Source of the DNA: Moringa oleifera
Taxonomy: Eukaryota; Streptophyta; Magnoliopsida; Brassicales; Moringaceae
DNA: 64,000 nt
Direction of reading: 5' to 3'
Assembly (NCBI GenBank): GCA_021397835.1
Contig: JAJFZO010000191.1
Coordinates: forward strand, 8,194,001 to 8,258,000
A program made the position numbers and the translations under genes. Of this stretch, positions 49 through 24,084 are shown piece after piece. The notes under the pieces are model-generated. The model was given only the letters and a program-made list of their open reading frames with translations, made no database searches and had not been told where the DNA came from. The number at the start of each line of letters is the position of its first letter. The first letter of the stretch is position 1.

Positions 49-2790
49 ATATCCTGCTGGACCTGTCAAAGTGCAAAAAGCTGGTGAAATGCTCAAAGGG
101 GCCGTGAAACTGCCAGTTGGAGTTGGTGAGATTCTTCAACTCTTTTTTATAGGGTAAGACAATAACTACCTATAGGAAGCTGAAACTTGATTCACAAGAA
201 GTGAAAGCTCAACCATATGTTAACGAGGACCACAACTTAGCTAACCACTGCTATGCTTTTAGATAGATATGGGGATATTAGCTACCAGCAGCAAGTGTAG
301 GGAAGAATTATATAGTCATTGATCTCCAGCTGAAAGTTCATCATTCTAGTGGCAAGATAGATGGCAAACCAATCAAACCTATCTATAAACTGCCTGGCTT
401 GTTCAGCTACAACGTCGCTAGATGGGAGGTTTACAAGAGTACTTACATGTGCAGCACATCAGCTTAGTCTTTGCTTTTATTCCAAATTAAACCCATATTT
501 GCCTGAACTGAGCTTAGATAGATATTTATTTACAGATACATGCGCATGACTAAATTTAAGGCTCAAAAGAAGACAGATTTCAACTAAAGTTATCTATTCA
601 GAAAGAATGTATAAAGCTAAAATAAAACTAGATGATCAAGTGACAATGAAGCACATTGATCATATCTGCAGATGACATTGGTTCTAATCTTGAGGGTTCT
701 GGTTCTGTAGCTGTACAAGCTATTACACAGCTTGCAAAAGCATCCAAATTGTACAGATCTAATTCATCACTGGTAAAGTTTGATTAACTTGAATTCATGT
801 TATGGCTTTTGTAAGGTGAGATTGATTATTCTTCTTTTATGTTGGAACACTGATAGAGAGGGTGGCATACAGAACTCTCACTTTACTGCCCTGTACAAGA
901 ATTAAAATTATATGTTTTTCAATGTTCTGTTGGCTTGGAAATTGGATTTTTCATGCATTTAATAACAGTTCGTATTTGATCACAAGATTACCTTCTTATG
1001 ACAAAAGAATAATTAGTGTTGAGAATCCAAGGTGCTTCCCCGAATGAAAAATGATAAAAAAAAAAAAAAAAGCAATAGCCGCAAGGTGGCCATTATATAT
1101 TCTTTTGCTTTTGATATTACAATAAAGCTTTAATTATTAGAACACAATTAGAAGTAGTTAAACAATGGTAAGTAGGAGCAATGTCAACATAAAGCTGGCT
1201 GGTGGGAATGGCAACCCCAGAGCTTTGAGTCCCTCTCTCACTTGTTCTTTCTTTAATGTATTTACAAAACATGCACAGTTAATCAATATCATACACGATG
1301 GCAATTGTGCGCATATAATTAGTACTTTTAAATATTGTGTTTTTCTAGGGACTACTTTAGCTGTGTTGGTATTCCCTATTCTGTGTCTTGCTTTGTGTAT
1401 ATTTCTACTGCAAGCCCATTACAGCTGAGATGCTTTGTACAGGGCACAGAAAATAAATCTCTTCTATCCTTTCCACTTGCAGTACCAGACAACCATTATA
1501 CATGTACTAATTTACAGTCCACACAAAAATTCTATTTCTAATTTATACAAATACCTCTTTCTCTTCTCTCTTTCTCTGAATTCTTTGTCATCACCTTCCA
1601 CATTCTTCTCCTCTCCCTCTTTCTCTATGCTTCAAATTTCAATTCTAAAGTTTTGCTTAAAAGGGTTTTCTCATTGAAACAACAAAAGAATAGAGATTGC
1701 ATAAAAACGTTGGTTGGATTATTTTTAAATTTACTTTTATGAGTATATTTATTCATGGTAGTACTACTAACTGCAAGTAATATTTTCGATGTTGTTTTGA
1801 ATGATTTATGGGGTGGTGGTTTGGTACAGATGGAGTAGAAATAAACCCAGAGAGATAATGTTGTCTGCACAAGGTCACTTTCTGTAGGCATTGTCTGTAT
1901 CCAACTATGATTCTCACAAAACACAGATTATTAATATGCTAATTTATTCAAGAGTACAACGGAGATGGATGCTTCTCGCACTGGTGTGTGATTCATCATT
2001 CTTAGTATTCATTTTCTTGTAGCCTCAATCAACTGTCTCTGTATTGTTTTTCCCTTTATTTATAGATTAATGATGATTTAGACCACTCAATTTATGGCTT
2101 GTCTACATACTACCTCCAGATTCAACTTCTTGAGCAACTGGTTGTGATCATATCTGGGTCAGGTTTCTATTATTTTTCTTGATTTGATCTTGTATCCAAT
2201 CTTTTTATTTTTCTTTGTTTGTTTACCCAAGAAAGGGAATTTTCTCGGGAATGTGGGTAAAGTGTGCTTTGGTGATGGTGATTTTCAGAGAATCATTCAG
2301 TGTACTGTTGGCAAATGAAGCAGAGGTTTTTGTGGATCCAGCTGCATTACTTCTCTGGGAACATAGGTTTGGACTTTTGAGATCATTTTCTTTTTTTGTC
2401 AAAATATTTTTCTTTTTCCCTGAGACCTTTCTCAAGTTTTGATGAAATTTGGGATTCAATTACATGAATACACTTAGTTGTAACATAATATGTAACTTAT
2501 TGAATGTGAACACATTTGTATGGGTATTTTAAGTTATTGGTCTTAGTCAGCTAGAACGAATAGCAAAGTTCTTTTGTATTAATGCATATCCACCATTGTT
2601 TCACAGGAATTCTTATCATAGAATGTCAATAGCTATAGGTGCTTTTCTTCACATTTTTTTGGTTATGCGTATATATATTTTTGTTATAGATTGTTTCTCA
2701 TCTATGTATTATCTGCTTGTGATTTCCATTGCTTTTCAGGTTTCATGATCGATAATTTGTATTACAGTAATACTTTACTGCATCGCTGAA

Positions 2791-3255
2791 ATGGTTCCCA
2801 TACCAAATGTCAAGGACTCTTGCAGCAATATTAGGAGGTACTGCAGGAGCATTGGCATTGGTGGGGATTTTAGTCTTATTTGTATGGTTCTGCTTGTCTC
2901 ACAGTAGGAGGGTGTCGAGAACTTCTGAGACAGGGTCTTCTGATCCATCTGAGACAGGTAGCATCCTTGTCATGTGTTTCTTAAAGTTTCAAAAGTAACT
3001 GACTTAAATGTAGAGAATTTGACCTTATGGTTTCTTTGGATTTCCTGCACTGGGAAGACATGTTGCAATTGAGTTATCCTTACGAGAAGCTAGATGATTT
3101 GAGACGGAAGAGTTGCCCCTGGCCACTAAAAGTTTCAGCGATAAAAGCCTGATTGGGAAAGGAAAATCTGGGGAGGTGTATAAGCCCGGCTTCAAGATGG
3201 ATGCTTGTGGCCATCAGAAAGTGACCAGGGCAAGAGTCAGAACTTTATTGATGAG
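2791..3255 (+). pseudogene. Receptor-like protein kinase pseudogene, 5' exons (copy A)
   Basis: The first two exons of a plant receptor-like kinase with a membrane anchor ahead of the kinase domain. Exon 1 (about 2791-2957) starts at ATG, then SRTLAAILGGTAGALALVG and a hydrophobic run to FVWFCLSHSRR: one transmembrane segment with a basic stop-transfer. It ends TSETGSSDPSE before a GTAGCA donor. Exon 2 (3051-3255) reads VAIELSLREAR, then a region corresponding to the family's glycine loop, here GKGKSGEVYK, and QNFIDE in another frame, before a GTAATAG donor. Lesions: a 2-base loss after MVPIPNV puts SRTLAA out of frame with the ATG; TGA at 3095-3097 interrupts EAR/FE; frame is lost again after the glycine loop; the exon 2 acceptor reads AC instead of AG. 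No catalytic-loop exons follow; T-rich DNA starts about 150 bases later. The family call rests on remembered homologues; no exact orthologue is claimed. Confidence 0.8.
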
Positions 3256-3399
3256 GTAATAGTTACTTCATATTCCTAAAGTTAATAGCATAACATGCTG
3301 CATCATAGATATTAAAGTTCAACTTGTCACTTCTAATGCTAGAATTGCCATGAAGTCTGATAGATATCATGTAGCTAGCTTCTCCAATCATAACAAATT

Positions 3400-6300
3400 G
3401 GGTAGATATTTTATTTACTTATTTTGGATACTTTTAGTATTTTTTTTGCATTTTTAGAATTTTCTCTTTTTGATTTATATTTTATTACAAATGTTTTAAA
3501 GATCAATGCAAATCTAAATTGTGGTTTTAAATTTTTTCTATAGAATATTTTATGATTCTTGAAATGTTTTAAATTATTTTACATTTTCTTCTCATCTTTT
3601 ATTTTTTAAAAGTTTCTACTCTTTTGTGTTTTTCCTGCTTTTTTAATTATTTTCTTTGAATTTTTTTTGGATTTGGTTACATTTTATTTTTATTTTATTT
3701 ACCTTTTTTATGATTATTTTTTATATATATTTTTGATATTTTATTTTATTATTTTCTTTTTCATTTTTATTTTTCAATTTTGTCAAATTTTCTTTTACTC
3801 GTTTTTTCATTTTTTTAAAGTTACTTTGGATTTTTTTAAAAAGAATTCTCATATTTTTTTTATTTTGTTGAGTATTTTAATTTTCAAGCACTTATTTTTT
3901 TTTATAGTAACTTTAGTTTTCTTAAATTTTTATTTTATTTGATTTTTAATCTTTTATTTTTCAACCTTGTTTATGATTTCTTGCACTTTTTAATTTTTTT
4001 GAATTTAAATCATCATTAACTACTTTAACACAAAATGATAAATATTAGACATCATCAAGTGGTTATAATTTTATTAATTTATTTAGCTTTTTTTGTTATT
4101 TTCCATTTTTATTTATCTAATTTTTAAATTTTATTTCATTTTCTACATTCATTTATTCGCTTATTTTACATAAATTTTATATTTTTGTTGTATTTATATT
4201 TTTTTATTGTTTGATTTGTTGTATTTTTATTACTTTTTTTATAAAAGATCACGTAAATCAAAAATATTTTCAATTTTTTACAGACAATTTTATTATTTTG
4301 AAAGTTTTTAAATTATAAAATAGTTTTACATTATTTTTTTCTCATTTTTTATTTTTTAGTTTTATAATCTTTTGTATATGTTATTTTTTTTATTTTCTTT
4401 GAATTTTTGGGATTTTATTATATTATATTATTATTATTTTTTTCTTTTTAGTGATTTCACTTAATATATATTTTTTAAATTTAATATTTTATTTTATTTT
4501 TAAGTATTTTCTTTTTCAATAAAATCTTTTTATTGCTTCGCAAAGAGTTTTTTTCTTTACTTGTACCTTTTTTTATTAACATTTTCTTTATTTTTTTGGA
4601 TTTTTTTTTGTATTTTTGGTTACTTATTTTTTAGAATTTTTTTCTTGCATTTATTTTTTTATTTTACTGTGTGTTTTTTATTTCTTTCACTTAATTTCTT
4701 TTAGTAATTTTATTTTCCTAGGATTTTTTAGTTTATTTGGATTTTTGTTTTTTATTTTTACTTTCTATTTGCTTTTATTTTATTTTTATTTTCTAATATT
4801 TTTTATTTTTTATTTTCCAAAATTTTCTATGATTTTTTTAATTTTTTAATGATTCTTTTATCTTTCCAAGTGGACCGTTGCAATTTTGTTAATTTATTTT
4901 TTTGATGAATTTGCAATTTTTTTTCTATGATTTCTTTATTTCTTATATTTTAATTCAACAAAATTACAAATATTAGATCTTACCAAGTAGTTGCAATTTT
5001 GTTAATTTAATTGGTTTTGAAATTTTTTACTATTTATTTTTATAGGATTGTTGAATTTTATTTTAATTTTAATATATTTTATTTATTTATTTTAAATCCT
5101 TTTATATTTTGTTGATTTTTTTAAATTTGATTTATTTTTTATTACATATTTCTTTAAAAAACAGTGCAAATCAAAATAAATTTTTAAGTTTTCTATAAAA
5201 TATTTTATCATTCTTGAATTGTTTTAAATTATTTTTCTGTTTTTATTTTTAAAATTTTCAAATCTTTTGTGTTTTTTCTTTTTTCAATTATGTTTTGGCT
5301 TCTTTGAAATTTTTGGGTTTTATTACATTTTAATTTTTTTTATTTCATTTGATTTTTGATTTTTTATGATTTTTGTATATATTTTATTTTATTTTTATAT
5401 TATATTATATATTTTACTATTTTTCTAACAAAATTTATGTTTTTTACTTTGTAAAGAGTCTTGTTTTTTTACTATTATATTTTACTTTATATATATTATC
5501 TTGATTTTATGGATTATTTTTATTCTTTTATTCTTTTTTAGTTACTTATGATTTTTTTGATTCTTTACATTTATTTTTAATTTTGTTATGGTTTTTAAGT
5601 TTCTTTTACTTATTTTTTTAGTAATTTTATTTTTTAATTAAAAATTACATGGAATTATGATTTGTCGTTACTTTTACTACCTTTTCTTTGGCTTGTTGTT
5701 GGCATTTACAAGAGTTTTCATTTAATATTTCATCAAATCATAGTTTTTTATTATCTTTTTATTCTCATTTATAATATTTAAAAATTTTAATTAAATTGGT
5801 CCATTATGATTATTAAATATTGTTGTTAATTTTGATTTTTTTGTGACAAATTTTGTTATGGAAGAATAAATTTTTAAAATAATATTGTAGAGAATTATTT
5901 AATATAAATTAATCATGAAATTATAATGGTCAATATTTTTTAAAAAAATAAATTCATAACTTTTTAAAAAATTATTGGTGGAGTTTTCAATGCTTAATGT
6001 GTTTAAAATTCGTATTACCTTAAGTATATGATTTACTATTCTTCCGTTATTTTCTAAATTTTATAAAATTTAACATTTATTGTGTTTCTTGAATTGTTGA
6101 ATTTTTTTTTTAAAGTTTGTTTGGTTTTTCAGTTTTTTATAACTTTTTTAGTTTTTATCATGTTGTTTCGAATTTTATTTTTATTTATTTTTTGTTTGTT
6201 TTTTCTTTGGAATTTGTTTGATTTTTTAAACTTTTTAAATTTTGATTTATTACATTTTTATGATTTTTTAAAACATCAGCATAAATTAAAATATTTTTAA

Positions 6301-6480
6301 ATATATTTGTAGCTTGTAATTTCATTTATTCTATTAATCTTTAAATTTTTTTGTGCAATTTTTAATTTTTTAAATAATTTTTAAATTTTAATAATTTAAT
6401 TTAATTAAATATTTTATATATTTTAAAATTAAATTTATTTTAATTTTTAAAAATAATAATAAAATTAATTAATAAATTAT
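3400..6480 (+). repeat. T-rich low-complexity block (copy A) with degenerate internal repeats
   Basis: About 3 kb in which the plus strand is overwhelmingly T, in runs such as TTTTATTTTATTT. It is not pure low complexity. A motif close to AAAGATCAATGCAAATC, followed by ATTTTATGATTCTTGAA and TTTTGTGTTTTTT, recurs near 3500, 4245 and 5160, with a remnant near 6273. A second motif, close to CAAGTGGTTGTAATTTTGTT, recurs near 4057, 4870 and 4985. This suggests an old array of a roughly 0.7-1.1 kb unit. ORFs here encode only F/L/I/Y strings from T-rich codons and are not genes. Confidence 0.85.
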
Positions 6481-6529
6481 TACTTTTAGTTAGAATGAAA
6501 CAACTCATAAATATCTCATGCATGCCTTC

Positions 6530-6700
6530 AAAATTTGATCGTTGGGCTTAGAGGACTTTTTAAACCAGAGCACTTCACGCCATTAGCATTGTTCTCCCTT
6601 TTCCTTTGCTGCTCTCTCTCTTCCTCTCTCTCTCTCTCTTTATCTCAAAATTCCCTCCGCTTGCCCTAACTTGTCATTGAAGAAAGGGTTTGATGCAGAA
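6530..6700 (+). promoter_or_regulatory. Promoter / CT-rich leader-like module, copy A
   Basis: After the T-rich block the composition becomes normal: AAATTTGATCGTTGGGCTTA, then a TTTTTAAACC stretch and a CT-repeat tract (about 6611-6640) ending in TATCTCAAAATTCCCTCCGC. A TATA-like element 50-60 bases before a pyrimidine-rich leader is typical of plant core promoters and 5' UTRs. Related versions lie at 59755-59924 (near identical) and 46262-46440 (diverged). Here the downstream part is replaced by the tandem array from 6703. Promoter activity is inferred, not shown. Confidence 0.45.
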
Positions 6701-9700
6701 GAATTAATTGGATTAAAAAATAAAAGTGACAGAAAAATTGATCTTCATTGAAATAAAGAACACTAAAGAGAAAAGTTCAATTTGTAAGCTCAGAAACAAA
6801 AGTGGAATCATTACCTAATTTATTGGCTATTAAATCAATAATCCGCATAAGTTTATACAGTTGAAAAACTTCATCATGAAATGAATATAAAAATACATAC
6901 ATAATTAGATAGCTCTATCATTATGCCAAGTAGCAAGATAGTCTCAACCAAAACTTTTAACATCACAAGTAACCATAAGGAAATTTATCAGTTAAAGAAA
7001 TTTAACTTGATGAAAAGCCATCTATCAGTTTTAATAAATATGAAAATGTATTAACTTTCTTTTATGGTCATTTTGAGAACTCCACCATGGTCATAGTTTG
7101 ATTCCAATGATGCCTTATGTGAACTGAAAATAGTAAAGATATATTAAAAGCTATTATCATCTTAACACATATAATGACTAAAATATGCAGCCATAAAAAA
7201 TTACCAAATTTATAATGACAACAGTTAGATTATAGCCCTAGAATAACTACTGCGATAATATCTACATACAAGAGTGAAAAAAATGTTACAACCAAATAAC
7301 ACATATATGACATAAGTTCCCCAACATTATCAGAAAACATTGCTTCAAGAGCACTATGGAGTATCCAATGCAAACACCAAAGAAAAAAGTTCATTTGTAT
7401 ACTTAAACAGAAGAGTAGAAGCATTACATAATTTATTGAGTGTTAAAACAAGGGTGTTCAAAGATCTCTCCTGCTTAAAAATTAGATCAAAAAACGTATA
7501 TACAACTACATACAAAAACAAGGTAAAAGACATGCAAACAAGAATATTACAAATTGAGAGCAACAGACAGAAAGAATGTTTTTTTTTTTTTTGTTACATG
7601 CAAGTGAGGTGAGTGTTCCCAAAAAGGATGTAGAAATGCTATAAACACACACAACCGAACAACACTTACCAATAGTTGCGTATTATTTAATTTGTTGATC
7701 TCCATGAAAATATCAACTTTAGAGAAAAAAAGAATTAATTGGATTAAAAAATAAAAGTGACTGAAAAATTGATCTTCATTGAAATAAAGAACACTAAAGA
7801 GAAAAGTTCAATTTGTAAGCTCAGAAACAAAAGTGGAATCATTACTTAATTTATTGGATGTTAAATCAACAATCCGCATAAGTTTATACAGTTGAAAAAC
7901 TTCATCATGAAATGCATATAAAAATACATATATAATTAGATAGCTCTATCATTATGCCAAGTAGCAAGATAGTCTCAACCGTAATTTTTAACATCGCAAG
8001 TAAACGTAAGGAAAATTTATCAGTTAAAGAAATTTAATATGATGAAAAGCCATCTATTATTTTTAATAAATATGAAAATGTATTAACTTTCTTTTATGGT
8101 CATTTTGAGAACTCCACCATAGTCATAGTTTGATTCCAATGATGCCTTATGTGAATTGAAAATAGTAAAGATATATTAAAAGCTATTATCATCTTAACAC
8201 ATATAATGACTAAAATATGTAGCCATAAAAAATTACCAAATTTACAATGACAGCAGTTAGATTATCGCCCTAGAATAACTACTGCGATAGTATCTACATA
8301 CAAGAGTGAAAAAAATGTTACAACCAATTGAGACATATATGATATAAGTTCCCCAACATTATCAGAAAACATTGCTTCAAGAGCACTATGGAGTATCCAA
8401 TGCAAACACCAAAGAAAAAAGTTCATTTTGTATACTTAAACAGAAGTGTAGAAGCATTACATAATTTATTGAGTGTTAAAACAAGGGTGTTCAAAGATCT
8501 CTCGTGCTTAAAAGTTTAATCAAAAATGTCTATACAACTACATACAAAAACAAGGTAAAAGACATGCAAACAAGAATATTACAAATTGAGAGCAACAAAC
8601 AGAAAGAATGCTTTTTTTTTTTGTTACATGCAAGTGAGGTGGGTGTTCCCAAAAAGGATCTAGAAATGCTATAAACACACACAATCGAACAACACTTACC
8701 AATAGCTGCGTATTATTTAATTTGTTGATCTCCATAAAAATATCAACTTTAGAAAAAAAAGAATTAATTGGATTAAAAAATAAAAGTGACTGAAAAATTG
8801 ATCTTCATTGAAATAAAGAACACTAAAGAGAAAAGTTCAATTTGTAAGCTCAGAAACAAAAGTGGAATCATTACCTAATTTATTGGATGTTAAATCAACA
8901 ATCCACATAAGTTTATACAGTTGAAAAACTTCATCATGAAATGCATATAAAAATACATACATAATTAGATAGCTCTATCATTATGCCGAGTAGCAAGATA
9001 GTCTCAACAGTAATTTTTAACATCGCAAGTAAACATAAGGAAAATTTATCAGTTAAAGAAATTTAACTTGATGAAAAGCCATCTATCATTTTTAATAAAT
9101 ATGAAAATGTATTAACTTTCTTTTATGGTCATTTTGAGAACTCTAACATGGTGATAGTTTGATTCCAATGATGCCTTATGTGTATTGAAAATAGTAAAGA
9201 TATATTAAAAGCTATTATTATCTTAACATATATAATGACTAAAATATGCAGTTATAAAAAATTACCAAATTTGCAATGAAAACAATTAGATTATAGCCCT
9301 AGAATAACTACTGCGATAGTATCTACATACAAGAGTGAAAAAAATGTTAAACCAAATGAGACATATATGACATAAGTTCCCCAACTTTATGAGAAAACAT
9401 TGCTTCAAGAGCACTATGGAGTATCCAATGCAAACACCAAAAGTTCATTTTGTATACTTAAACAAAAGAGTAGAGGCATTACATAATTTATTGAGAGTTA
9501 AAACAATGGTTTTCAAAGATCTTTCCTACTTAAAAATTTCATCAAAAAATGTATATACAACTACATACAAAAACAAGGTAAAAGACATGCAAACAAGAAT
9601 ATTACAAATTGAGAGCAACAGACAGAAAGAATGTTTTTTTTTTTTTGGTTACATGCAAAGAATAGAGCAAACATGCAAATGAGGTGGGTGTTCCCAAAAA

Positions 9701-12700
9701 GGATCTAGAAATGCTATAAACACTCACGATCGAACAACACTTACCAATAGCTGCTTATTATTTAATTTGTTGATCTTCATGAAAATATCAACTTTAGAGA
9801 AAAGAGAATTAATTGGATTAAAAAATAAAAGTGACTGAAAAATTGATCTTCATTGAAATAAAGAACACTAAAGAGAAAAGTTTAATTTGTAAGCTCAGAA
9901 ACAAAAGTGGAATCATTACCTAAATTATTGGATGTTAAATCAATAATCCACATAAGTTTATACAGTTGAAAAACTTCATCATGAAATGCATATAAAAATA
10001 CATATATAATTAGATAGCTCTATCATTATGCCAAGTAGCAAGATAGTCTCAACCGTAATTTTTAACATCGCACGTAAACATAAGGAAAATTTATCAGTTA
10101 AAGAAATTTAATATGATGAAAAGCCATATATCATTTTTAATAAATACGAAAATGTATTAACTTTCTTTTATGGTCATTTTGAGAACTCCACCATGGTCAT
10201 AGTTTGACTCCAATGATGCCTTATGTGAATTGAAAATAGTAAAGATATATTAAAAGCTATTATCATCTTAACACATATAATGTCTAAATAATGCAGTTAT
10301 AAAAAATTACCAAATTTACAATGATAACAGTTAGATTATAGCCCTAGAATAACTACTGCTATAGTATTTACATACAAGAGTGAAAAAAATGTTACAACCA
10401 AATGAGACATATATGACATAAGTTCCCCAACTTTATGAGAAAACATTGCTTCAAGAGCACTATGGAGTATCCAATGCAAACACCAAAGAAAAAAGTTCAT
10501 TTTGTATACTTAAACAGAAGAGTAGAAGCATTACATAATTTAATGAGTGTTAAAACAAGGGTGTTCAAAGATCTCTCCTGCTTAAAAATTTGATCAAAAA
10601 ATGTATATACAGCTACATACAAAAAATAGATAAAAGACATGCAAACAATAATATTACAAATTGAGAGCAACATACAGAAAGAATGTTTTTCTTTTTTGGT
10701 TACATGCAAAGAATAGAGCAAACATGAAAATGAGGTTGGTGTTCCCAAAAAGGATCTAGAAATGCTGTAAACACGCACGATCGAACAACACTTACCAATA
10801 GTTGCGTATTATTTAATTTTTTGATCTCCATAAAAATATCAACTTTTGAGAAAAAAAAGAATTAATTGCATTAAAAAATAAAAGTGACTGAAAAATTGAT
10901 TTCCATTGAAATAAAGAACACTAAAGAGAAAAGTTCAATTTGTAAGCTCAGAAACAAAAGTGGAATCATTACCTAAATTATTGGATGTTAAATCAATAAT
11001 CCGCATAAGTTTATACAGTTGAAAAACTTCATCATGAAATGCATATAGAAATACATAAATAATTAGATAGCTCTATCATTATGCCAAATAGCAAGATAGT
11101 CTCAACCGTAATTTTTAACATCACAAGTAAACATAAGGAAAATTTATCAGTCAAAGAAATTTAATATGATGAAAAGCCATCTATCATTTTTAACAAATAT
11201 GAAAATGTATTAACTTTCTTTTATGGTCATTTTGAGAACTCCACCATGGTCATAGTTTGATTCCAATGATGCCTTATGTGAATTGAAAATAGTAAAGATA
11301 TATTAAAAGCCATTATCATCTTAACACATATAATGACTAAATAATGCAGTTATAAAAAATTACCAAATTTACAATGACAACAGTTAGATTATAGCCCTAG
11401 AATAACTACTGCGATAGTATCTACATACAAGAGTGAAAAAAATGTTACAACCAAATGAGACATATATGACATAAGTTCCCCAACTTTATGAGAAAACATT
11501 GCTTCAAGAGCACTATGGAGTATCCAATGCAAACACCAAAGAAAAAAGTTCATTTTGTATACTTAAACAGAAGAGTAGAAGCATTACATAATTTATTGAG
11601 TGTTAAAACAAGGGTGTTCGAAGATCTCTCCTGCTTAAAAATTTGATCAAAAAATGTATATACAGCTACATACAAAAAATAGGTAAAAGACATGCAAACA
11701 AGAATATTACAAATTGAGAGCAACAGACAGAAAGAATGTTTTTTTTTTTGTTACATGCAAAGAATAGAGCAAACATGAAAATGAGGTGGTGTTCCCAAAA
11801 AGGATCTAGAAATGCTATAAACACGCACGATCGAACAACACTTACCAATAGTTGCGTATTATTTAATTTTTTGATCTTCATCAAAATATCAACTTTAGAC
11901 AAAAAAGAATTAATTGGATTAAAAAATAAAAGTGACTGAAAAATTGATCTTTATTGAAATAAAGAACACTAAAGAGAAATGTTCAATTTGTAAGCTCAGA
12001 AACAAAAGTGGAATCATTACTTAATTTATTGGATGTTAAATCAACAATCCACATAAGTTTATACAGTTGAAAAACTTCATCATGAAATGAATATAAAAAT
12101 ACTTACATAATTAGATAGCTCTATCATTATGCCAAGTAGCAAGATAGTCTCAACCAAAATTTTTAACATCACAAGTAAACATAAGGAAAATTTATCAGTT
12201 AAAGAAATTTAACTTGATGAAAAGCCATCTATCATTTTTAATAAATACGAAATTGTATTAACTTTCTTTTATGGTCATTTTGAAAACTCCACCATGGCCA
12301 TAGTTTGATTCCAATGATGCCTTATGTGAATTGAAAATAGTAAAGATATATTAAAAGCCATTATCATCTTAACACATATAATGACTAAAATATGCAGCTA
12401 TAAAAAATTACCAAATTTACAATGACAACAGTTAGATTATAGCCCTAGAATAACTACTGCGATAGTATCTACATACAAGAGTGAAAAAAATGTTACAACC
12501 AAATGAGACATATATAACATAAGTTCCCCAACTTTATGAGAAAACATTGCTTCAAGAACACTATGGAGTATCCAATGCAAACACCAAAGAAAAAAGTTTA
12601 TTTTGTATACTTAAACAAAAGAGTAGAAGCATTACATAATTTATTGAGTGTTAAAACAAGGGTTCAAAGATCTCTCCTGCTTAAAAATTTCATCAAAAAA

Positions 12701-15700
12701 TGTATATATAACTACATACAAAAACAAGGTAAAAGACATGCAAACAGGAATATTACAAATTGAGAGCAACAGACTGAAAGAATGTTTTTTTTTTTTTTGG
12801 TTACATGCAAAGAATAGAGCAAACATGCAAATGAGGTGGGTGTTCCCAAAAAGGATCTAGAAATGCTATAAACACACACGATCGAACAAAACTTACCAAT
12901 AGCTACGTATTATTTAATTTGTCGATCTCCATGAAAATATCAACTTTAGAGAAAAGATAATTAATTGGATTAAAAAATAAAAGTGACTGAAAAATTGATC
13001 TCCATTGAAATAAAGAACACTGAAGAGAAAAGTTCAATTTGTAAGCTCAGAAACAAAAATGAAATCATTACCTAATTTATTGGATGTTAAATCAACAATC
13101 CGCATAAGTTTATACAGTTGAAAAACTTCATCATGAAATGCATATAGAAATACATAAATAATTAGATAGCTCTATCATTATGCCAAATAGCAAGATAGTC
13201 TCAACCGTAATTTTTAACATCACAAGTAAACATAAGGAAAATTTATCAGTAAAAGAAATTTAATATGATGAAAAGCCATCTATCATTTTTAACAAATATG
13301 AAAATGTATTAACTTTCTTTTATGGTGATTTTGAGAACTCCACCATGGTCATAGTTTGATTCCAATGATGCCTTATGTGAATTGAAAATAGTAAAGATAT
13401 ATTAAAAGCCATTATCATCTTAACACATATAATGACTAAATAATGCAGTTATAAAAAATTACCAAATTTACAATGACAACAGTTAGATTATAGCCCTAGA
13501 ATAACTACTGCGATAGTATCTACATACAAGAGTGAAAAAAATGTTACAACCAAATGAGACATATATGACATAAGTTTCCCAACTTTATGAGAAAACATTG
13601 CTTCAAGAGCACTATGGAGTATCCAATGCAAACACCCAAGAAAAAAGTTCATTTTGTATACTTAAACAGAAGAGTAGAAGCATTACATAATTTATTGAGT
13701 GTTAAAACAAGGGTGTTCGAAGATCTCTCCTGCTTAAAAATTTGATCAAAAAATGTATATACAGCTACATACAAAAAATAGGTAAAAGACATGCAAACAA
13801 GAATATTACAAATTGAGAGCAACAGACAGAAAGAATGTTTTTTCTTTGTTTCATGCAAAGAATAGAGCAAACATGAAAATGAGGTGGGCGTTCCCAAAAA
13901 GGATCTAGAAATGCTATAAACACGCATGATCGAACAACACTTACCAATAGTTGCGTATTATTTAATTTTTTGATCTTCATCAAAATATCAACTTTAGACA
14001 AAAAAGAATTAATTGGATTAAAAAATAAAAGTGACTGAAAAATTGATCTTTATTGAAATAAAGAACACTAAAGAGAAATGTTCAATTTGTAAGCTCAGAA
14101 ACAAAAGTGGAATCATTACTTAATTTATTGGATGTTAAATCAACAATCCACATAAGTTTATACAGTTGAAAAACTTCATCATGAAATGAATATAAAAATA
14201 CTTACATAATTAGATAGCTCTATCATTATGCCAAGTAGCAAGATAGTCTCAACCAAAATTTTTAACATCACAAGTAAACATAAGGAAATTTATCAGTTAA
14301 AGAAATTTAACTTGATGAAAAGCCATCTATCATTTTTAATAAATACGAAATTGTATTAACTTTCTTTTATGGTCATTTTTAAAACTCCACCATGGCCATA
14401 GTTTGATTCCAATGATGCCTTATGTGAATTGAAAATAGTAAAGATATATTAAAAGCCATTATCATCTTAACACATATAATGACTAAAATATGCAGCTATA
14501 AAAAATTACCAAATTTACAATGACAACAGTTAGATGATAGCCCTAGAATAACTACTGCGATAGTATCTACATAAAAGAGTGAAAAAAATGTTACAACCAA
14601 ATGAGACATATATAACATAAGTTCCCCAACTTTATGAGAAAACATTGCTTCAAGAACACTATGGAGTATCCAATGCAAACACCAAAGAAAAAAGTTTATT
14701 TTGTATACTTAAACAAAAGAGTAGAAGCATTACATAATTTATTGAGTGTTAAAACAAGGGTTCAAAGATCTCTCCTGCTTAAAAATTTCATCAAAAAATG
14801 TATATATAACTACATACAAAAACAAGGTAAAAGACATGCAAACAAGAATATTACAAATTGAGAGCAACAGACTGAAAGAATGTTTTTTTTTTTTTTGGTT
14901 ACATGCAAAGAATAGAGCAAACATGCAAATGAGGTGGGTGTTCCCAAAAAGGATCTAGAAATGCTATAAACACACACGATCGAACAAAACTTACCAATAG
15001 CTACGTATTATTTAATTTGTCGATCTCCATGAAAATATCAACTTTAGAGAAAAGATAATTAATTGGATTAAAAAATAAAAGTGACTGAAAAATTGATCTC
15101 CATTGAAATAAAGAACACTGAAGAGAAAAGTTCAATTTGTAAGCTCAGAAACAAAAATGAAATCATTACCTAATTTATTGGATGTTAAATCAACAATCCG
15201 CATAAGTTTATACAGTTGAAAAACTTCATCATGAAATGCATATAGAAATACATAAATAATTAGATAGCTCTATCATTATGCCAAATAGCAAGATAGTCTC
15301 AACCGTAATTTTTAACATCACAAGTAAACATAAGGAAAATTTATCAGTAAAAGAAATTTAATATGATGAAAAGCCATCTATCATTTTTAACAAATATGAA
15401 AATGTATTAACTTTCTTTTATGGTGATTTTGAGAACTCCACCATGGTCATAGTTTGATTCCAATGATGCCTTATGTGAATTGAAAATAGTAAAGATATAT
15501 TAAAAGCCATTATCATCTTAACACATATAATGACTAAATAATGCAGTTATAAAAAATTACCAAATTTACAATGACAACAGTTAGATTATAGCCCTAGAAT
15601 AACTACTGCGATAGTATCTACATACAAGAGTGAAAAAAATGTTACAACCAAATGAGACATATATGACATAAGTTCCCCAACTTTATGAGAAAACATTGCT

Positions 15701-18208
15701 TCCAGAGCACTATGGAGTATCCAATGCAAACACCCAAGAAAAAAGTTCATTTTGTATACTTAAACAGAAGAGTAGAAGCATTACATAATTTATTGAGTGT
15801 TAAAACAAGGGTGTTCGAAGATCTCTCCTGCTTAAAAATTTGATCAAAAAATGTATATACAGCTACATACAAAAAATAGGTAAAAGACATGCAAACAAGA
15901 ATATTACAAATTGAGAGCAACAGACAGAAAGAATGTTTTTTCTTTGTTTCATGCAAAGAATAGAGCAAACATGAAAATGAGGTGGGCGTTCCCAAAAAGG
16001 ATCTAGAAATGCTATAAACACGCATGATCGAACAACACTTACCAATAGTTGCGTATTATTTAATTTTTTGATCTTCATCAAAATATCAACTTTAGACAAA
16101 AAAGAATTAATTGGATTAAAAAATAAAAGTGACTGAAAAATTGATCTTTATTGAAATAAAGAACACTAAAGAGAAATGTTCAATTTGTAAGCTCAGAAAC
16201 AAAAGTGGAATCATTACTTAATTTATTGGATGTTAAATCAACAATCCACATAAGTTTATACAGTTGAAAAACTTCATCATGAAATGAATATAAAAATACT
16301 TACATAATTAGATAGCTCTATCATTATGCCAAGTAGCAAGATAGTCTCAACCAAAATTTTTAACATCACAAGTAAACATAAGGAAATTTATTAGTTAAAG
16401 AAATTTAACTTGATGAAAAGCCATCTATCATTTTTAATAAATATGAAATTGTATTAACTTTCTTTTATGGTCATTTTGAAAACTCCACCATGGCCATAGT
16501 TTGATTCCAATGATGCCTTATGTGAATTGAAAATAGTAAAGATATATTAAAAGCCATTATCATCTTAACACATATAATGACTAAAATATGCAGCTATAAA
16601 AAATTACCAAATTTACAATGACAACAGTTAGATTATAGCCCTAGAATAACTACTGTGATAGTATCTACATACAAGAGTGAAAAAAATGTTACAACCAAAT
16701 GAGACATATATAACATAAGTTCCCCAACTTTATGAGAAAACATTGCTTCAAGAACACTATGGAGTATCCAATGCAAACACCAAAGAAAAAAGTTTATTTT
16801 GTATACTTAAACAAAAGAGTAGAAGCATTACATAATTTATTGAGTGTTAAAATAAGGGTTCAAAGATCTCTCCTGCTTAAAAGTTTCATCAAAAAATGTA
16901 TATACAACTACATACAAAAACAAGGTAAAAGACATGCAAACAAGAATATTACAAATTGAGAGCAACATACAGAAAGAATGTTTTTTTTTTTTTTTGGTTA
17001 CATGCAAAGAATAGAGCAAACATGCAAATGAGGTGGGTGTTCCCAAAAAGGATCTAGAAATGCTATAAACACACACGATCGAACAACACTTACCAATAGC
17101 TACGTATTATTTAATTTGTCGATCTCCATGAAAATATCAACTTTAGAGAAAAGATAATTAATTGGATTAAAAAATAAAAGTGACTGAAAAATTGATCTCC
17201 ATTGAAATAAAGAACACTAAAGAGAAAAGTTCAATTTGTAAGCTCAGAAACAAAAATGAAATCATTACCTAATTTATTGGATGTTAAATCAACAATCTGC
17301 ATAAGTTTATACAGTTGAAAAACTTCATCATGAAATGCATATAAAAATACATAAATAATAAGATAGCTCTATCATTATGCGAACTTGTAAGATAGTCTCA
17401 ACCGTAATTTTTAACATCGCAAGTAAACATAAGAAAAATTTATCAGTTAAAAAAATTTAATATGATGAATAGCCATCTATCATTTTTAATAAATATGAAA
17501 ATGTATTAACTTTGCTTTATGGTCATTTTGAGAACTACACCATGGTCATAGTTTGATTCCAATGATGCCTTATGTGAATTGAAAATAGTAAAGATATATT
17601 AAAAGCCATTATCATCTTAACACATATAATGACTAAAATATGCAGCTATAAAAAATTACCAAATTTACAATGACAACAATTTGATTATAGCCCTAGAATA
17701 ACTACTGCGATAGTATCTACATACAAGAGTGAATAAAATGTTACAACCAAATGAGACATATATGACATAAGTTCCCCAACTTTATGAGAAAACATTGCTT
17801 CGAGAGCACTATGGAGTATCCAATGCAAACACCAAAGAAAAAAGTTCATTTTTTATACTTAGACAGAAGAGTAGAAGCATTACATAATTTATTGAGTGTT
17901 AAAACAAGGGTGTTCAAAGATCTCTCCTGCTTAAAAATTTCATCAAAAAATGTATATACAACTACATACAAAAACAAGGTAAAAGACATGCAAATAAGAA
18001 TATTACAAATTGAGAGCAATAGACAGAAAGAATGCTCTTTTTTTTTTTTTGTTACATGTAAAGACTAGAGCAAACATGCAAATGAGGTTGGTGTTCCTAA
18101 AAAGGATCTAGAAATACCATAAACACACACGATCGAACAACACTTACCAGTAGCTGCGTATTATTTAATTTGTTGATCTCCATGAAAATATCAACTTTAG
18201 AGAAAAAG
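6701..18208. repeat. Tandem array of ~1.05 kb units (11 full copies)
   Basis: Unit starts, taken at the first G of GAATTAATTGGATTAAAAAA (GATAATTAATTGG in units 7, 9 and 11), are 6701, 7732, 8761, 9806, 10859, 11907, 12957, 14006, 15055, 16104 and 17154, with the next at 18208. Spacings are 1029-1054 bases. The units are very similar over their whole length. Each contains a poly-T tract near base 860-880 (minus-strand poly-A) and a minus-strand exon-like piece, MEINKLNNTQLL, ending at a GTAAGTGTTGTTCG donor-like site. Short ORFs recur once per unit because the units are copies; their frames break differently between units, so they are not conserved genes. Confidence 0.97.
10859..17154. repeat. 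Higher-order (2.1 kb dimer) organisation inside the 1.05 kb array
   Basis: Alternate units resemble each other more than their neighbours. Those starting at 12957, 15055 and 17154 share GATAATTAATTGG and a CGATCTCCATG variant; those at 11907, 14006 and 16104 share ACAAAAAAGAATT, a GATCTTCATCAAAATATC variant and GAGAAATGTTC. Identical ORF patterns recur at 12536, 14634 and 16732, and at 11666, 13765 and 15863 (spacing 2098-2099). The blocks 12957-15054 and 15055-17153 are nearly identical, which points to recent dimer-level duplication, as in higher-order satellite repeats. Confidence 0.9.
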
Positions 18209-18500
18209 AATTAATTAGATTTAAAAAATAAAAGTGACCGAAAAATTGATCTTCATTGAAATAAAAAAGACTAAAAGAAAAGTTCAATTTGTAAGCTCAA
18301 AAACAAGTGGAATCATTACCTAAATTATTAGATGTTAAATCAACAATCCACATAAGTTTATACTGTTGAAAAACTTCATCATGAAATGCATATAAAAATA
18401 CATACATAATAAGATAGGTAGACATCCAGATAAACGAGTTATAGATGGAAAGCAAGAGAGAGAAACATTGTCTTATTTTGGTTGCATGCAAAAGAATAAG
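18208..18500. repeat. Truncated 12th unit of the 1.05 kb array
   Basis: The unit opening is present (GAATTAATTAGATTT, AAGTGACCGAAAAATTGATC, TAATTTATTG-like, AACTTCATCATGAAATGC), then homology to the first sub-unit stops near 18410. The sequence moves into a stretch resembling the second half of the unit and the larger downstream repeats (GCAAGAGAGAGAAACATTGTC, TTGGTTGCATGCAAAAGAAT). This is the right edge of the array. Confidence 0.85.
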
Positions 18501-19021
18501 ATATGCACCGTATTAATTGATACCTATCCATTTCTTGACTTCATATAATTATAACTTATCAAAAAAAAAAAAACTTTTATCTAACCGAAACAAATAAAGC
18601 AGTGGATCAACTTAGTGAGATGCCATGTATCAATAAAAGAACATTTAAAAATGATGACTTACTTTTTTATTTTTCTATTTTACTTAAATAATTCCTCATT
18701 AAAAAAAGCACAATTCACAAGATTAAAATCAATAGTAACTTATAGCTGCTTATAAATGTAACATGTTTTAAGAAAGGATATACAAATACTATGGATATAC
18801 TCAATTGGATAGCTGCATGTTGATTAATCTGTTGATCTCCATAAAAAAATCAAATGCAAAGAAAAAAAGAAGAACATGGTTAAATAATAGAAGTGACCAC
18901 AAGAAAAATGAACTTGATTGAAATATCAAAAGTGACCAAAAAATTAACTTTCATTGAAATAAAAAATTTTAAACAAAAAAGTTTAAAGAGAAAAGTGAAA
19001 GCATTAGCTAATTTATTGTGC
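18500..19021. repeat. Transition zone with a diverged half-unit
   Basis: No gene is seen. About 18820-19021 is a diverged relative of the 1.05 kb unit: CTGTTGATCTCCATAAAAAAATC, AAGTGACCAAAAAATTAAC, TTCATTGAAATAAAAAA and GCATTAGCTAATTTATTG all have direct counterparts in the array. It links the array to the larger repeats that start next. Confidence 0.7.
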
Positions 19022-20413
19022 ATTAAAACAAGAGTTTGATGAAAAAACTTCTTTAGGAAATGTATATGCAATTACATACCTAAACAAAGACGACAAGAGA
19101 ACAAGTAGATTATAGGTTGAAAACAAAAGGGAGAAGATTGCCTTGTTTTGGTTGACCCAAACGAATCAAGCAGGCCTTGTTTTGGTTGACAACTATCCAT
19201 TTTCTTGGCTCTATAGAACTATCACTTGTACATAAAATCAATGATTGTGACTCCAAGAAGATGTATAACCAGTGATAAAGTCTTCCATTAACCAAAAAAC
19301 ATTTACAAGTGATGACTAACTCCGTTTCTTATTTTTTTCTAGTGAAAGAGTGACATATAAAAAAGATAATTCAAAATATTACAACACTAACCTTCTTGGT
19401 AACATTGAGTCTACATGATGAGTAACTGTCATAAGTTCTGAGAGGCAAGGTATTTTCAAATAAAATCTACAATAAATAGACACAATTGGACAATACTTAC
19501 CAAGTGTAATTTGCTAATATCCATATAAATCTTGCTAAGGAATAAGTAAGCAAGGCCTAAATTGAAAGGTCTCAATCACAAGAAACATTGCTTAATGAAT
19601 AAGAAAGAATTTATCAAATAAACAAAGGGAAGCCTAATAACAAATGAAAATGAATGAAAAGTTGTGAATCTACCCTAGCAGCATTTGTAAGATCTTGTCA
19701 ACTTTCATGGAAGTAATAAAATTAAAGGAACTCTGAGTACACATGATTGTATGCAAAAACCTAAAAACATCTCTACCCAGTTCCATAACATCATAATTGA
19801 AAAGCCCCTTAGTTGCTTCAAAAATTATGAGATGACTTACACCTCTTAGGCCATGTGTAATGGCACTAGTTATAAAAGAGAAAAGTCAATAAGAAACTAG
19901 AAATATGTTCATACCTGAAATTTCACCGTTCCAATATAAAGCTTCTGCTTTATTTCCTTACGAACATCACGCCATGCAAGTTAATAAAATGAAAAAATAA
20001 GCAGAACTCACCAAGAAGGAATAAACATGTACATCCTTACAAAATATCTAGGAGTCATACAATACATTTCCCTTCCAAAAGTGTGAAAGAAGTTTTTAAA
20101 AAATAAGAAAAAAAAAAGAATAAGAAAGAACAAGGAAAGGCTATGGGGATAAAAATATCTAATCATGTTACAATTGGTCTTTGTTGTATAAAATAATTCA
20201 AACATTTAACATAGGAGGATTAATCAAAGGCAAAGGGTTTAGAGCATTAATTTAATACACTTAAGAACTTACTATTTGAGACCAACCAAACTACCAAATG
20301 GTATAAACAAATTTGCACAATTATTCTTGAAGTAGTGAACATCAAGAAATTTTTTTACACAAAATCTGCAAGCTAGTTACCATATAAAAGAGTCTAGATA
20401 AAGGAATCAACCA

Positions 20414-21582
20414 ACCTTGACTGCTAATTCACCGATAGCTCAACATGCATTGTTGGCAATAAAAATGGATTCTTTCAACTGAGTGGCATCTTGCACATCA
20501 AGTGTTATGTAGAAAGTACAAAACTAAAAACCCCGAATGCAAAAACATAAATTGGATTCCAAAGATGAAAGAGAGTCCTTTTACTAGCTATTTGGCTATA
20601 ACATCAAGGAATTCAGATAGGCGAGGATATAAATATACAAGTCAGACCTGATTGTAAAAGAAAATTTATCATTATATAACATACGTGTATATATTCAGTG
20701 GTAAGAATGTGTGAATATTTATACAAGAAAGTTTCTGGCAAAGAATGTGATTTTAACTCACTCTTGTAAGGTCCCCAAGAAGTTGAAGAGCACCTTGTTG
20801 AACATCGGAAGCATCATCAATACAACACTGCAGAGTGAAGCCTATAATGAAGGTTTAAATCAACAAGTAGGACAAAATGTCTTTAAATGCAATTAGCCTA
20901 TCTAGTAGTCTTCCCAAAATGTGACACCATATGTTAACAACGAGAACAATCGCCCCCTCTCAAGATAGCAGGGTGCTACAAGCATAAAATGCATCGTCAT
21001 CAAACAGCCTATATACCAAAATCATTGTGAGCCTTCAGATCCACTAAAAACCAATAGTTTTTACATCACCAAAGACTTCTACATAAATGCCTTTCTAAAG
21101 ATACTGCATAAAACCCACTATAGCAGAATCGCAAGTTTAATAGTCACTAAAGTTTTGGCCTAGCAATGAAAAGAATGAGCTTAATTGAGTTGTTGTGTCC
21201 ATATAGAACCTCATTTAATAAAACTACTATCACTAAACATTAAGAACAATTTTTTTCATGTTTGGCAGTTAGTGCTATCACACTATAAAGACTAGTGATT
21301 GGCACTACCAACAAGATTTATTCTGTATAATAATACACTAAGAAAAAGTAAAAATTAATTTTGTTGACATTTATTACTTCGAAGGACCCAAAATCAAATG
21401 CAGTTCCAATGACAAATAGAAGCACTCAAGCTTGAAATCATCAAATACAAGAAATAAAAGCCAGATAGGTCTGCAAATATATTCTCAAGATATTTGACAA
21501 AGATAAATACCAAACTTCAATCATACTGCCAAGCCTTTTTACAAGACTTGGGAGCAAGCCTAAGCAGCAGACAATAAACTCC
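20414..21582 (-). pseudogene. Transportin (importin-beta family) pseudogene fragment, repeat unit 1
   Basis: Four consecutive minus-strand exon pieces match the C-terminal HEAT repeats of plant transportin, the nuclear import receptor for M9/PY-NLS cargo, in the right order. At 21511-21582: EFIVCCLGLLPSLVKRLGSM. At 20762-20835: LQCCIDDASDVQQGALQLLGDL. At 20583-20622: LSEFLDV-like. At 20414-20495: QLKESIFIANNAC, then AIGELAVKV. Introns lie between them and donors of GT type remain. Lesions: a TGA (complement of 20440-20442) replaces the Trp of the conserved NNACWAIGELAVKV; other substitutions hit conserved glycines; the flanking exons of the ~890-residue protein are missing. It cannot encode transportin. 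Related fragments lie in units 2 and 4. Confidence 0.85.
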
Positions 21583-22373
21583 TTATCAAATTATACTCTA
21601 CAAACACAAAAGCAACCTATAACATAAGCATCCATTGTTATTTGATGGAAGTTGAAAATAATACCTATTATCTGTTAATCATATGGTCAGAAACTTTTCA
21701 ACAAGTAAAAACATTTAAAATATTAAGTGTTATGAACAAATTGGTGAGGAAAACATATACAGTAAATCCTATAAATAACAAGAGAAAACCCATGTCAGCA
21801 AGCATAAGATAATTATTTCTTCACATCTCAATAATGTGCTTAAAATTAAACATAACTTAAATAAAATAAATGCTCGGATCAGTGGGCATGTTCATTATTG
21901 CAAGGTAACCCAACCTTGGGTCATGCACTTCGAAATGTGGCAGTTTGAAACAATGGACATTTACTGAATTATATCATGTGTTTTGAAGTATCATAAAGTG
22001 GAAGTAAAATCCTAAGCTATTTTTTAAACCCCATAGTAGAGTGCAACTTGATATTAAAGTAGGCCTATAGAAACATGCCTAAGAAACCATAATGAAGTAG
22101 ATCCTGCATCTTTGACAAATAGCAATACAAATGTGACAAAGAAAAGCCTAGCACAACGAAGTTCATATTTTTAATGCTTTTAGGCTAAGGAGCTTAAACT
22201 CCAAACTAGTAACACAAATAAGCCAGATATACAGAATCGCTAAATCATCCATTAGCCAATTCCTACTACCTTCCAACTAGATCACAGCAAATTAAAAACA
22301 AAATTTAAAAAGCTAACTAAATAAAATAGTACATCAACATTGATTAGTTAGCAACGAATCATACCTGAACCAA

Positions 22374-22482
22374 AATCTCTGATGCTTGAATGCATGATGG
22401 GTTCCATAGTTTGCGCACATCAACTTTCTCATTGGCTAGTGGATGAGGTTCAAGAGGAAAATCAAATGTAAACCTAAAATCT
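22374..22482 (-). pseudogene. Unassigned exon-like block (PLEPHPLANEKVDVRKL)
   Basis: On the minus strand, open after a polypyrimidine/AG acceptor and up to CAG|GTATGATT: FTFDFPLEPHPLANEKVDVR, then KLWNPSCIQASEILVQ. Related versions are at about 27690-27795 (FPPEPHPLVNEKVDACKL) and 34147-34262 (FPLEPHPLANEKVDVRKL, then an in-frame TAG). The coding sense is kept better than the flanking intronic DNA, so it is probably an old exon. I do not recognise the protein. It lies directly upstream of the transportin exons, yet does not resemble the transportin segment expected there. Confidence 0.5.
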
Positions 22483-22916
22483 GTGAAAAATAATAAACAC
22501 ACAGTACCTCATTTACTACTTAAAAAAGTTCAAAAATAAAAAAAACAAACAAGAAAATTACTTTAATTACAAAAATAGAATAGCAAAAAATGCAAATCGA
22601 ATTTCTCAGTAGATTTTGGCACAAAAAAAAAACCATGATTTTCCTTCAACAGTATAAAAATTTGAAAACTGTGCATCATAGAAAGTGGGTCCTTTAAATA
22701 ATTAGCACAGACTGACAATAACACTCATAACTCCTTTTGCACCCAAAACCTGTTATTTATCAGAATGTAAACCTAAAAAGAATAATGACATCTAAACCCT
22801 TGACCAGTTAATTCCTTTTGTTGAAATACAAAATAAGGTATATAAACTAAAAGAAAGTTGCAATTGGACTTTGTAGAAAGTAACAGGGAAAACAAAAAAA
22901 TGTTAAGTTAAATACC

Positions 22917-23022
22917 TTTCCAATTCTCCCCCAGTTAAATTTTCTCATCTAAGGCTGCCATTGCTAGGAGCAAATTCCTAGCAACATTAGGTAATTCTGG
23001 TAATGAAAGGGCTGTCATTGGT
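22917..23022 (-). pseudogene. Unassigned exon-like block (LPELPNVARNLLLAMAA)
   Basis: The minus strand reads PMTALSLPELPNVARNLLLA, then MAALDEK, then frame loss before a GGTATT donor. The copy in unit 2 (about 28255-28360) reads PMTALSLPELPNATGNLVLV. Two copies with shared coding sense suggest a real ancestral exon. The helix-like, Leu/Ala-rich stretch would fit an alpha-solenoid protein, but this is only a guess from composition; no family is assigned. Confidence 0.45.
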
Positions 23023-23352
23023 TTTGAACTAACAAAAAATGACTACAAACATGAGAACAGACATTAATGAAGAGCAGAGGAACATAAGAACAAATGATTA
23101 GTTATAGTGAAGCATTACAAGATGAGATCAACTTCCTTACTCCATTTGCACAAATCACAATGGCAAACACAAATATATGTAGATTATTATTAAGCAACAA
23201 GAGCTACTAATGTGATATTTAGTCATCAAGCATGAGACCACATATGATCATCCTCGGTTCTACCATCTTCTTTAAACAAAATATTTTTGCTCTTTTTATC
23301 CTTGAATGCCTCCATATATTGCAAGTTTTATCAAATAATATGAAGGACAAAC

Positions 23353-23420
23353 CTTTTTTTGGATTGCAGGCAATAGAATATCTCTATCATCATGGACACA
23401 GAGCTTCTTTGGAGTTTACA
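23353..23420 (-). pseudogene. Unassigned exon-like block (KLCVHDDRDILLPAIQKK)
   Basis: The minus strand reads KLCVHDDRDILLPAIQKK between CTCCAAAG and a GTTTGTCC donor-like site. Counterparts are at about 28905-28975 (KLHVYGGRDILLRAIQEK) and 30906-30975 (KLHVYGNGDIVLHVIQKK). The frame is open in all three copies and substitutions are largely conservative, so the block was probably once an exon. The protein is not recognised. Confidence 0.5.
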
Positions 23421-24084
23421 AATGGGAGAAAAAGTAGTAGATAACAATAAAGACAAATGATTTTTGTAGCCCACAAAATTTTAACAGGAATCAAGATATG
23501 TAATAAAACATGACTCTTAAGAGAACATAGTGAGGAAAGATTCTATTTTCTGTATGGCGGTTGCATTCACCTAGATAATATTGTTTTTGTGGAGAACAAA
23601 ATCAAGCTTGTTATTTTGCCCTGTGAGAAACTAACATGAAACCCATTTTTAGCTTCACAACTAGGTGTCCGACAATAACATCTGTCTTTGTGTTCATGAA
23701 CGCAGCTTTTTTAGTTTTCTTGTCTCTAAGTCAAACAAATTAGGATCAATTAAGATATGAAAAAAGATCACCTAAATAACTGAGGCAGGAAGGCAAAGGT
23801 GAAGAAACTCCATGGCCAGCTAAATCTTCACATGGTATTGTGTTTTACAAGGTTCACTGTCAAATCACCAAAAATTTGCATCTGCGATTCTGTTAATAAC
23901 AAGGCTATGCCACTTAAGAACACGGAGAATCCTTCATTTCTTTAATAAAGTTACCATGACAAAAGTGTAGGGCATATAATTTACTTTTGTTACTTCTATG
24001 AAGCACACTAGCAAGCATGGATTTTGAAGGAATGTCTCAAAAAAAAAAATAAATAAATGTGTCCATGTGAATGTGCCAATAATT

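What the first reader, a model, noticed from the sequence alone, without database searches (positions are those of the whole stretch)
6701..18500. Satellite-like array with three nested repeat levels, apparently grown from intron/exon DNA
Seen directly: eleven ~1.05 kb units plus a truncated one; alternate units form ~2.1 kb dimers; and each unit has two diverged sub-units. In the second unit, AAAGAGAAAAGTTCAATTTG (about 7796) and AAAGAAAAAAGTTCATTTTG (about 8411) open parallel stretches (TAATTTATTGGATGTTAAA versus TAATTTATTGAGTGTTAAA, then AACTTCATC...ATGCATATAA versus ATTTGATC...ATGTATATAC). Inference: an internal duplication made the monomer, which was amplified and then re-amplified as dimers.
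Basis: partly seen in the sequence, partly recalled or inferred. Interest (0 to 1): 0.75.

Follow-up and report, generated by a model that had tools for sequence, protein, structure and literature searches.

The report
Young tandem array of golgin-gene fragments
A 1-kilobase piece of a decayed, fused gene copy has been repeated eleven times in a row, and sister copies with one, three and six repeats let us watch step by step how a satellite-like array is born.

Summary
The array is real: eleven units of 1029-1053 bp plus a 213-bp stub, window 6699-18417. The alternate-unit (dimer) pattern holds for U5-U10 only. The sub-unit similarity is real, but it covers about 235 bp, predates the array and is cut by the array's edge, so it did not make the monomer.

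Units descend from gene DNA. In 11 of 11 units about 448 bp matches, at about 70%, three exons with introns of a golgin/TMF-type gene elsewhere in the genome (PF12325). That block belongs to a dispersed family: 38 of 39 non-self places listed share the golgin breakpoint, and L010 carries an AIR9-type exon upstream on the same strand.

Single-copy relatives show the pre-duplication state and a TAG microhomology at the duplication junction. Neighbouring duplicated segments carry 1 and 3 copies. Contig C61, with flanks 99% identical to the window's, carries 6.2 copies and has the dimer once where the window has it three times. All 11 window units lost two splice sites.

Best reading: a non-coding, copy-variable, macrosatellite-like array grown by local duplication and unequal exchange. 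Known kind, unusually well resolved.

The parts
6699..18417 (.). tandem array: units U1-U11 (6699-7728, 7729-8757, 8758-9802, 9803-10855, 10856-11903, 11904-12954, 12955-14002, 14003-15052, 15053-16100, 16101-17151, 17152-18204) and partial U12 (18205-18417)
10856..17151 (.). dimer zone: three copies of a 2.1-kb dimer, U5-U6, U7-U8, U9-U10; present once in contig C61
6910..7356 (-). golgin/TMF-homologous block in U1 (exon A 7293-7355, then intron, exon B, intron, part of exon C)
7941..8388 (-). golgin/TMF-homologous block in U2 (exon A 8325-8387); similar blocks at 8970-9416, 10015-10462, 11068-11515, 12116-12563, 13167-13614, 14215-14661, 15265-15712, 16313-16759, 17364-17811
7941..7943 (.). 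TAG at the duplication junction (example in U2), lying inside golgin exon C
7790..7943 (.). sub-repeat copy A in U2 (unit positions 62-215)
8405..8633 (.). sub-repeat copy B in U2 (unit positions 677-905)
18415..20382 (.). right flank collinear with single-copy family members, including the rest of sub-repeat A; the part from about 19.7 kb corresponds to DNA beside the AIR9 gene through locus L010 (inferred)
5049..6698 (+). left flank joined directly to unit position 1; its second copy in the window (53721-59924) runs on into unrelated DNA, so this edge is a rearrangement join, not the original family edge (inferred)

Best explanation
A local, copy-number-variable, macrosatellite-like array made from a degenerate gene copy. 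Shown: (1) A segment from the 3' part of a golgin/TMF-type gene (exons with introns, so copied as DNA) is present in 39 listed dispersed places, 38 of them ending at one breakpoint inside a golgin exon. (2) In single-copy places the sequence runs unit 213-1029, unit 1-215, right flank, without interruption. (3) In the C12 cluster that 1.03-kb segment is tandemly repeated, and the repeat junction lies at a TAG shared by both ends. (4) Copy number is 1, 3 and 11.2 in three C12 places and 6.2 in contig C61. (5) A dimer present once in C61 is present three times in the window. Inferred: the first duplication was microhomology-mediated (end joining or template switching). Later growth was by unequal exchange in register, first of single units and then of a dimer. 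C61 is the other haplotype. The golgin fragment had earlier been joined to AIR9-type gene DNA and spread with it by tandem and segmental duplication. The array itself most likely encodes nothing.
For: Array and identities. Collinear single-copy relatives: 9 of the 14 loci compared (L009-L014, L017, L018, L020) run across both edges in one alignment; L015 has 3 copies; L016, L019, L021 and L022 align in two pieces broken near unit position 900. TAG junction. Golgin homology in 11 of 11 units, E 7e-63 to 2e-56; exon A found in 11 of 11 units at E 0.003-0.12 with permissive settings. Parent exons joined in frame match PF12325 at 9e-16. Shared golgin breakpoint in 38 of 39 non-self places (40 of 94 candidates scored). 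AIR9: PF23197 at 6e-10 in L010, 120 matches in the genome (150 of 211 candidates scored; none in the 14 control genomes). DNA next to the AIR9 exon of L010 matches, at 86%, DNA beside the last A9 match of a stop-free series at C533. C61 flanks 99.3% (left, 1647 bp) and 99.0% (right, 1330 bp). Copy numbers and dimer history. Exon B donor and exon C acceptor lost in 11 of 11 units.
Against: C61 could be an unplaced paralogue rather than an allele; only parts of it were read. Only its last three units pair closely with window units: C61_1 is 96.7% like U1, C61_2 and C61_3 are nearest U5 at 96.2% and 96.7%, and U2-U4 have no close partner there, so the left half has a less simple history than the dimer zone. 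Arrays of 1-kb units can be mis-sized in assembly; no reads could be checked. C570 and C60 share the left flank (98.4%, 96.7%), but their arrays run into other DNA on the right, so their counts (about 6.9 and 5.1) are lower bounds or broken arrays. The left TAG is TAG in 4 of 6 loci compared and TAA in 2 of 6, and a 3-bp match can be chance. The parent is only about 70% identical, so the donor could be a lost relative. No transcription data.
Confidence: 0.85

Rival explanations
1. A true satellite family: the window holds a small outlier of a repeat that forms large blocks elsewhere in the genome.
For: Units are 93.9-99.8% alike and some follow a higher-order (dimer) pattern, as satellites do.
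Against: In the own-genome search, runs of complete units occur only in C12 (window and 8133 kb) and the small contigs C60, C61 and C570 (39 of 85 candidates scored). Unassembled blocks cannot be excluded.
Confidence: 0.06
2. A transposable element that captured gene fragments (CACTA or Helitron type) carries the unit, and the array is its internal or subterminal repeat.
For: Mosaic of golgin, AIR9 and AAA-ATPase pieces; CACTA transposase domains (PF13963, PF02992) lie about 10 kb from the single copy at C84:320.6 kb.
Against: No Pfam domain at all was found in the three minus-strand frames of window 18.5-37.9 kb (the plus strand was not scanned). Collinearity between copies runs for more than 7 kb without a common end inside the stretches read. 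Copies sit in clusters. Terminal repeats and target-site duplications were not tested.
Confidence: 0.08
3. The repeats are a functional exon array: successive golgin exons are spliced into a lengthened coiled-coil protein.
For: Exon A is open in all 11 units and its donor GT is kept in 10 of 11 (U3 had a gap there).
Against: At the aligned positions the exon B donor (GT to GA or CA) and exon C acceptor (AG to GA) are lost in 11 of 11 units; exon C is cut by the junction. No convincing codon-like pattern across relatives.
Confidence: 0.03

Closest known systems
Macrosatellites / large variable-number tandem repeats derived from genes (recalled, human examples)
   Same: Kilobase-scale units, one or a few loci, gene-derived, variable copy number, partial higher-order structure
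   Different: Plant-like genome; a unit made partly of golgin exons and introns; single-copy and 3-, 6- and 11-copy stages present in one assembly
Satellite DNA arising from tandem repeats inside retrotransposons (PMC7004042; search listing and start of abstract only)
   Same: A pre-existing short tandem array as the seed of satellite-like DNA
   Different: The seed here is a degenerate gene copy, not shown to be a mobile element
Segmentally duplicated gene clusters with decayed copies (recalled)
   Same: Segments 74-75 kb apart in C12, clusters on several contigs, broken copies
   Different: Adds internal amplification of one exon-intron block in one cluster, and of another block elsewhere

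Membership tests
Satellite DNA | head-to-tail tandem units of near-constant length | tested here: met
Satellite DNA | large or numerous arrays genome-wide | tested here: not met
   runs of complete units only at C12 and contigs C60, C61, C570 (39 of 85 candidates scored; assembled DNA only)
Macrosatellite / large VNTR | kilobase units at one or few loci | tested here: met
Macrosatellite / large VNTR | copy number differs between homologous places or alleles | tested here: met
   1, 3 and 11.2 in three C12 places; 6.2 in C61. Allelic status of C61 is inferred from flanks of 99.3% and 99.0%.
Macrosatellite / large VNTR | copy number varies between individuals | not testable with these tools
   one assembly only
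Golgin/TMF (PF12325) gene family | homology to the TMF C-terminal exons | tested here: met
Golgin/TMF (PF12325) gene family | intact splice sites and frame | tested here: not met
   11 of 11 units lack exon B donor and exon C acceptor; the window units are remnants, not members
Gene-capturing transposon (CACTA/Helitron) | shared termini and target-site duplications | not tested
   ends of the family not mapped; nearby CACTA domains seen only at C84

The most novel reading that the evidence does not exclude
The AIR9-golgin family is a nursery of satellites: different exon-intron blocks of it have become tandem arrays independently in different copies. Seen here: the 1.05-kb golgin block in C12; a 413-bp block holding an AIR9 exon remnant, about 16 copies at roughly 75-80% identity at C563:5002-5010 kb; and a block of about 740 bp in three copies at C563:5321-5324 kb. 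If the family itself favours tandem amplification (sequence, replication or chromatin), it offers a natural series for studying how satellites start.
Probability: 0.3. Interest if true: 0.62.

Novelty: new member of a known kind. Interest (0 to 1): 0.43.

Why it matters
The birth of satellite arrays is usually inferred from finished ones. Here one assembly keeps single-copy relatives, the duplication junction, a three-copy stage, a six-copy stage with one dimer and an eleven-copy stage with three dimers, and the source gene can be named. That makes the steps (microhomology duplication, unit growth, dimer growth) directly testable with reads and relatives.

Tried and rejected
Coding signal: stop-free and synonymous-change windows, a conservation profile and third-position enrichment gave no convincing exon. 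They did not point to the golgin exons, probably because those are short and decayed. The link came from reading the exon next to the junction, where the golgin likeness was first recalled, and was then tested. In one search the two PF12325 matches beside unit loci had E of 0.62 and 0.66 and the two at C523 0.003 and 0.013, none over the curated cut-off, and that search also rang in 7 of 14 control genomes; taken alone they prove nothing. The weight rests.

Rejected: the unit as part of an AAA-ATPase gene. An AAA exon remnant lies near several copies, but L042, a stretch with a better-kept AAA gene, matched only that exon among the loci held then. Rejected: an Rfam RNA or tRNA origin (0 Rfam matches at gathering score, 0 tRNAs in the window). 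Discarded: the first sub-unit shuffle test, circular; replaced. Pfam scans of the three minus-strand frames of window 18.5-37.9 kb gave nothing.

Literature: seven searches, listings of 2 to 15 papers and starts of abstracts only; no paper was opened. None of the listed titles or abstract starts described an AIR9-golgin fusion or this array; several searches held far more papers than were listed, so this is not proof of absence.
Full report
What is there. The window lies at C12:8194001-8258000 of a 279.5-Mb, 669-contig genome, plant-like by its AIR9 and golgin genes (inference). Window 6699-18417 holds eleven units of 1029-1053 bp and a 213-bp partial unit. Most pairs are 94-96% alike. U5/U7/U9 (98.4-99.8%) and U6/U8/U10 (98.9-99.6%) form two sets that alternate, so a 2.1-kb dimer is repeated three times. 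U3 and U4 join these sets loosely but in the opposite phase; U1, U2 and U11 stand apart.

Single-copy relatives. The own-genome search with one unit gave 147 matches (39 of 85 candidates scored). Outside C12 and the small contigs C60, C61 and C570 the main matches are single copies at about 76-86% identity, with shorter and weaker pieces beside them. In them the order is unit 213-1029, unit 1-215, then the window's right flank. Of 14 fetched loci, 9 run across these edges in one alignment, L015 has three copies, and four align in two pieces. Collinearity between copies goes on for more than 7 kb. So the array is an internal block of a longer dispersed family.

The junction. In single-copy loci the right edge ends in TAG (5 of 5 compared) and the left edge begins with TAG in 4 of 6 and TAA in 2 of 6; in the array the two meet over one TAG. 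Three shared bases suggest a microhomology-mediated first duplication (inference). C12:8133 kb (L015) holds three copies with the same edges; C12:8067 kb (L014) holds one. The window's left edge is different: the array starts at unit position 1, joined to a block whose second copy in the window (53721-59924) runs on into unrelated DNA.

What the unit is made of. The exon just left of the single-copy block reads as the C-terminal part of a plant golgin/TMF protein (recalled, then tested). A 1.5-kb stretch of C523 (L043) carries part of such a gene; its exons joined in frame give PF12325 at 9e-16. L043 positions 99-562 match all eleven window units at 68.7-70.4%: exon A (SAFEATLRQKEGELASYMSRL in the parent), exon B, part of exon C, and the introns between. 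Introns are kept, so this was copied as DNA. With L043 as query, 38 of 39 non-self places end at L043 554-562 and one at 527; seven further short pieces lie beside listed places (40 of 94 candidates scored). One founding breakpoint, inside a golgin exon, explains this. The rest of the unit (positions 661-1029 and 1-212) does not match L043.

The partner. Upstream on the same strand, L010:6450-6584 matches the AIR9 A9 domain (PF23197, 6e-10). The genome has 120 such matches (150 of 211 candidates scored), 15 of them a series without stops at C533:2486596-2501582, others on contigs such as C12, C51, C84, C519, C522, C563 and C572. L010 DNA next to its AIR9 exon matches C533:2501588-2502478 at 86%, just beyond the last A9 match of that series. 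Thus AIR9-type DNA lies next to golgin-type DNA in this family, on one strand. That it was once a working fused gene is inference. No AIR9 match was found in the window itself at the cut-off used.

Decay. In 11 of 11 window units the exon B donor and exon C acceptor are lost at the aligned positions. Among 14 other loci the exon B donor is GT in 10 (GC in 2 more) and the exon C acceptor is AG in 4; L016, L020 and L022 keep all five sites examined. The array is most likely non-coding; some relatives may not be.

Sub-units. Copies A and B align at 68.5% over about 235 bp, beyond all of 1000 shuffles. A weaker third relative lies in the right flank. A and B are separate in the nine single-copy loci of the tree. 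They are older than the array, and one is cut by the array edge.

Growth. Contig C61 shares both flanks with the window (99.3% over 1647 bp on the left, 99.0% over 1330 bp on the right) and has 6.2 units. Its fourth unit is 99.1% like U5, its fifth 99.9% like U10 and its sixth 99.0% like U11. So the dimer is single there and triple in the window. Its first three units have no partner closer than 96.7%, and U2-U4 none in C61: the left half has changed more. C570 shows its own dimer doubling (units 4 and 6 are 99.1% alike, 3 and 5 are 97.6%). For the same right flank C12:8133 kb is 95.7% and C12:8067 kb 91.1% identical, which fits an order of 1, 3, then 6 and 11 copies. The region copied at window 34.3-35.7 kb recurs at C12:8079312, 8153026 and 8228300, that is 74-75 kb apart.

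Other arrays in the family. At C563:5002-5010 kb an AIR9 exon remnant recurs every 413 bp, in TRF rows of 6.0, 6.9 and 3.0 copies at 78-80% matches. At C563:5321-5324 kb three copies of a block of about 740 bp occur.

Verdict. Real, ordinary in kind, unusually informative in its preserved steps. No function is claimed.

Noticed in passing
L019/L029 (C563:5002-5010 kb): A second tandem array, 413-bp units with AIR9 A9-exon remnants, about 16 copies at roughly 75-80% identity.
   Followed up: partly
C563:5321661-5324566: Three tandem copies of a block of about 740 bp from the family's left part.
   Followed up: no
window 34355-35053: Three copies of a 233-bp repeat (96%); a 121-bp part of it matches many dispersed places in the genome.
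   Followed up: no
window 19021-33521: Diverged (about 82%) large repeats, some spaced about 5.3 kb apart, in the right flank.
   Followed up: partly
window 439-6703 and 53721-59924: A 6.3-kb block, duplicated at 93%, with a receptor-kinase-like exon (name recalled; no Pfam match; 12 matches in the genome).
   Followed up: partly
window 39798-39938 (-): AAA-ATPase exon remnant (PF00004 at 0.0013, below cut-off); 28 matches in the genome, several near unit loci.
   Followed up: partly
L041 (C84:331-332 kb): CACTA-type transposase domains (PF13963, PF02992) about 10 kb from a single-copy unit.
   Followed up: no
window 4-6, 36-38, 44-46, 58-60 kb: Very AT-rich blocks (13-18% GC), partly similar to each other.
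   Followed up: no
L012-L015, L017, L018, left of the unit: Golgin exon C is longer than in the parent (139-167 against 114 bp, 6 of 14 loci), with short internal repeats visible in L012, L013, L017 and L018.
   Followed up: no
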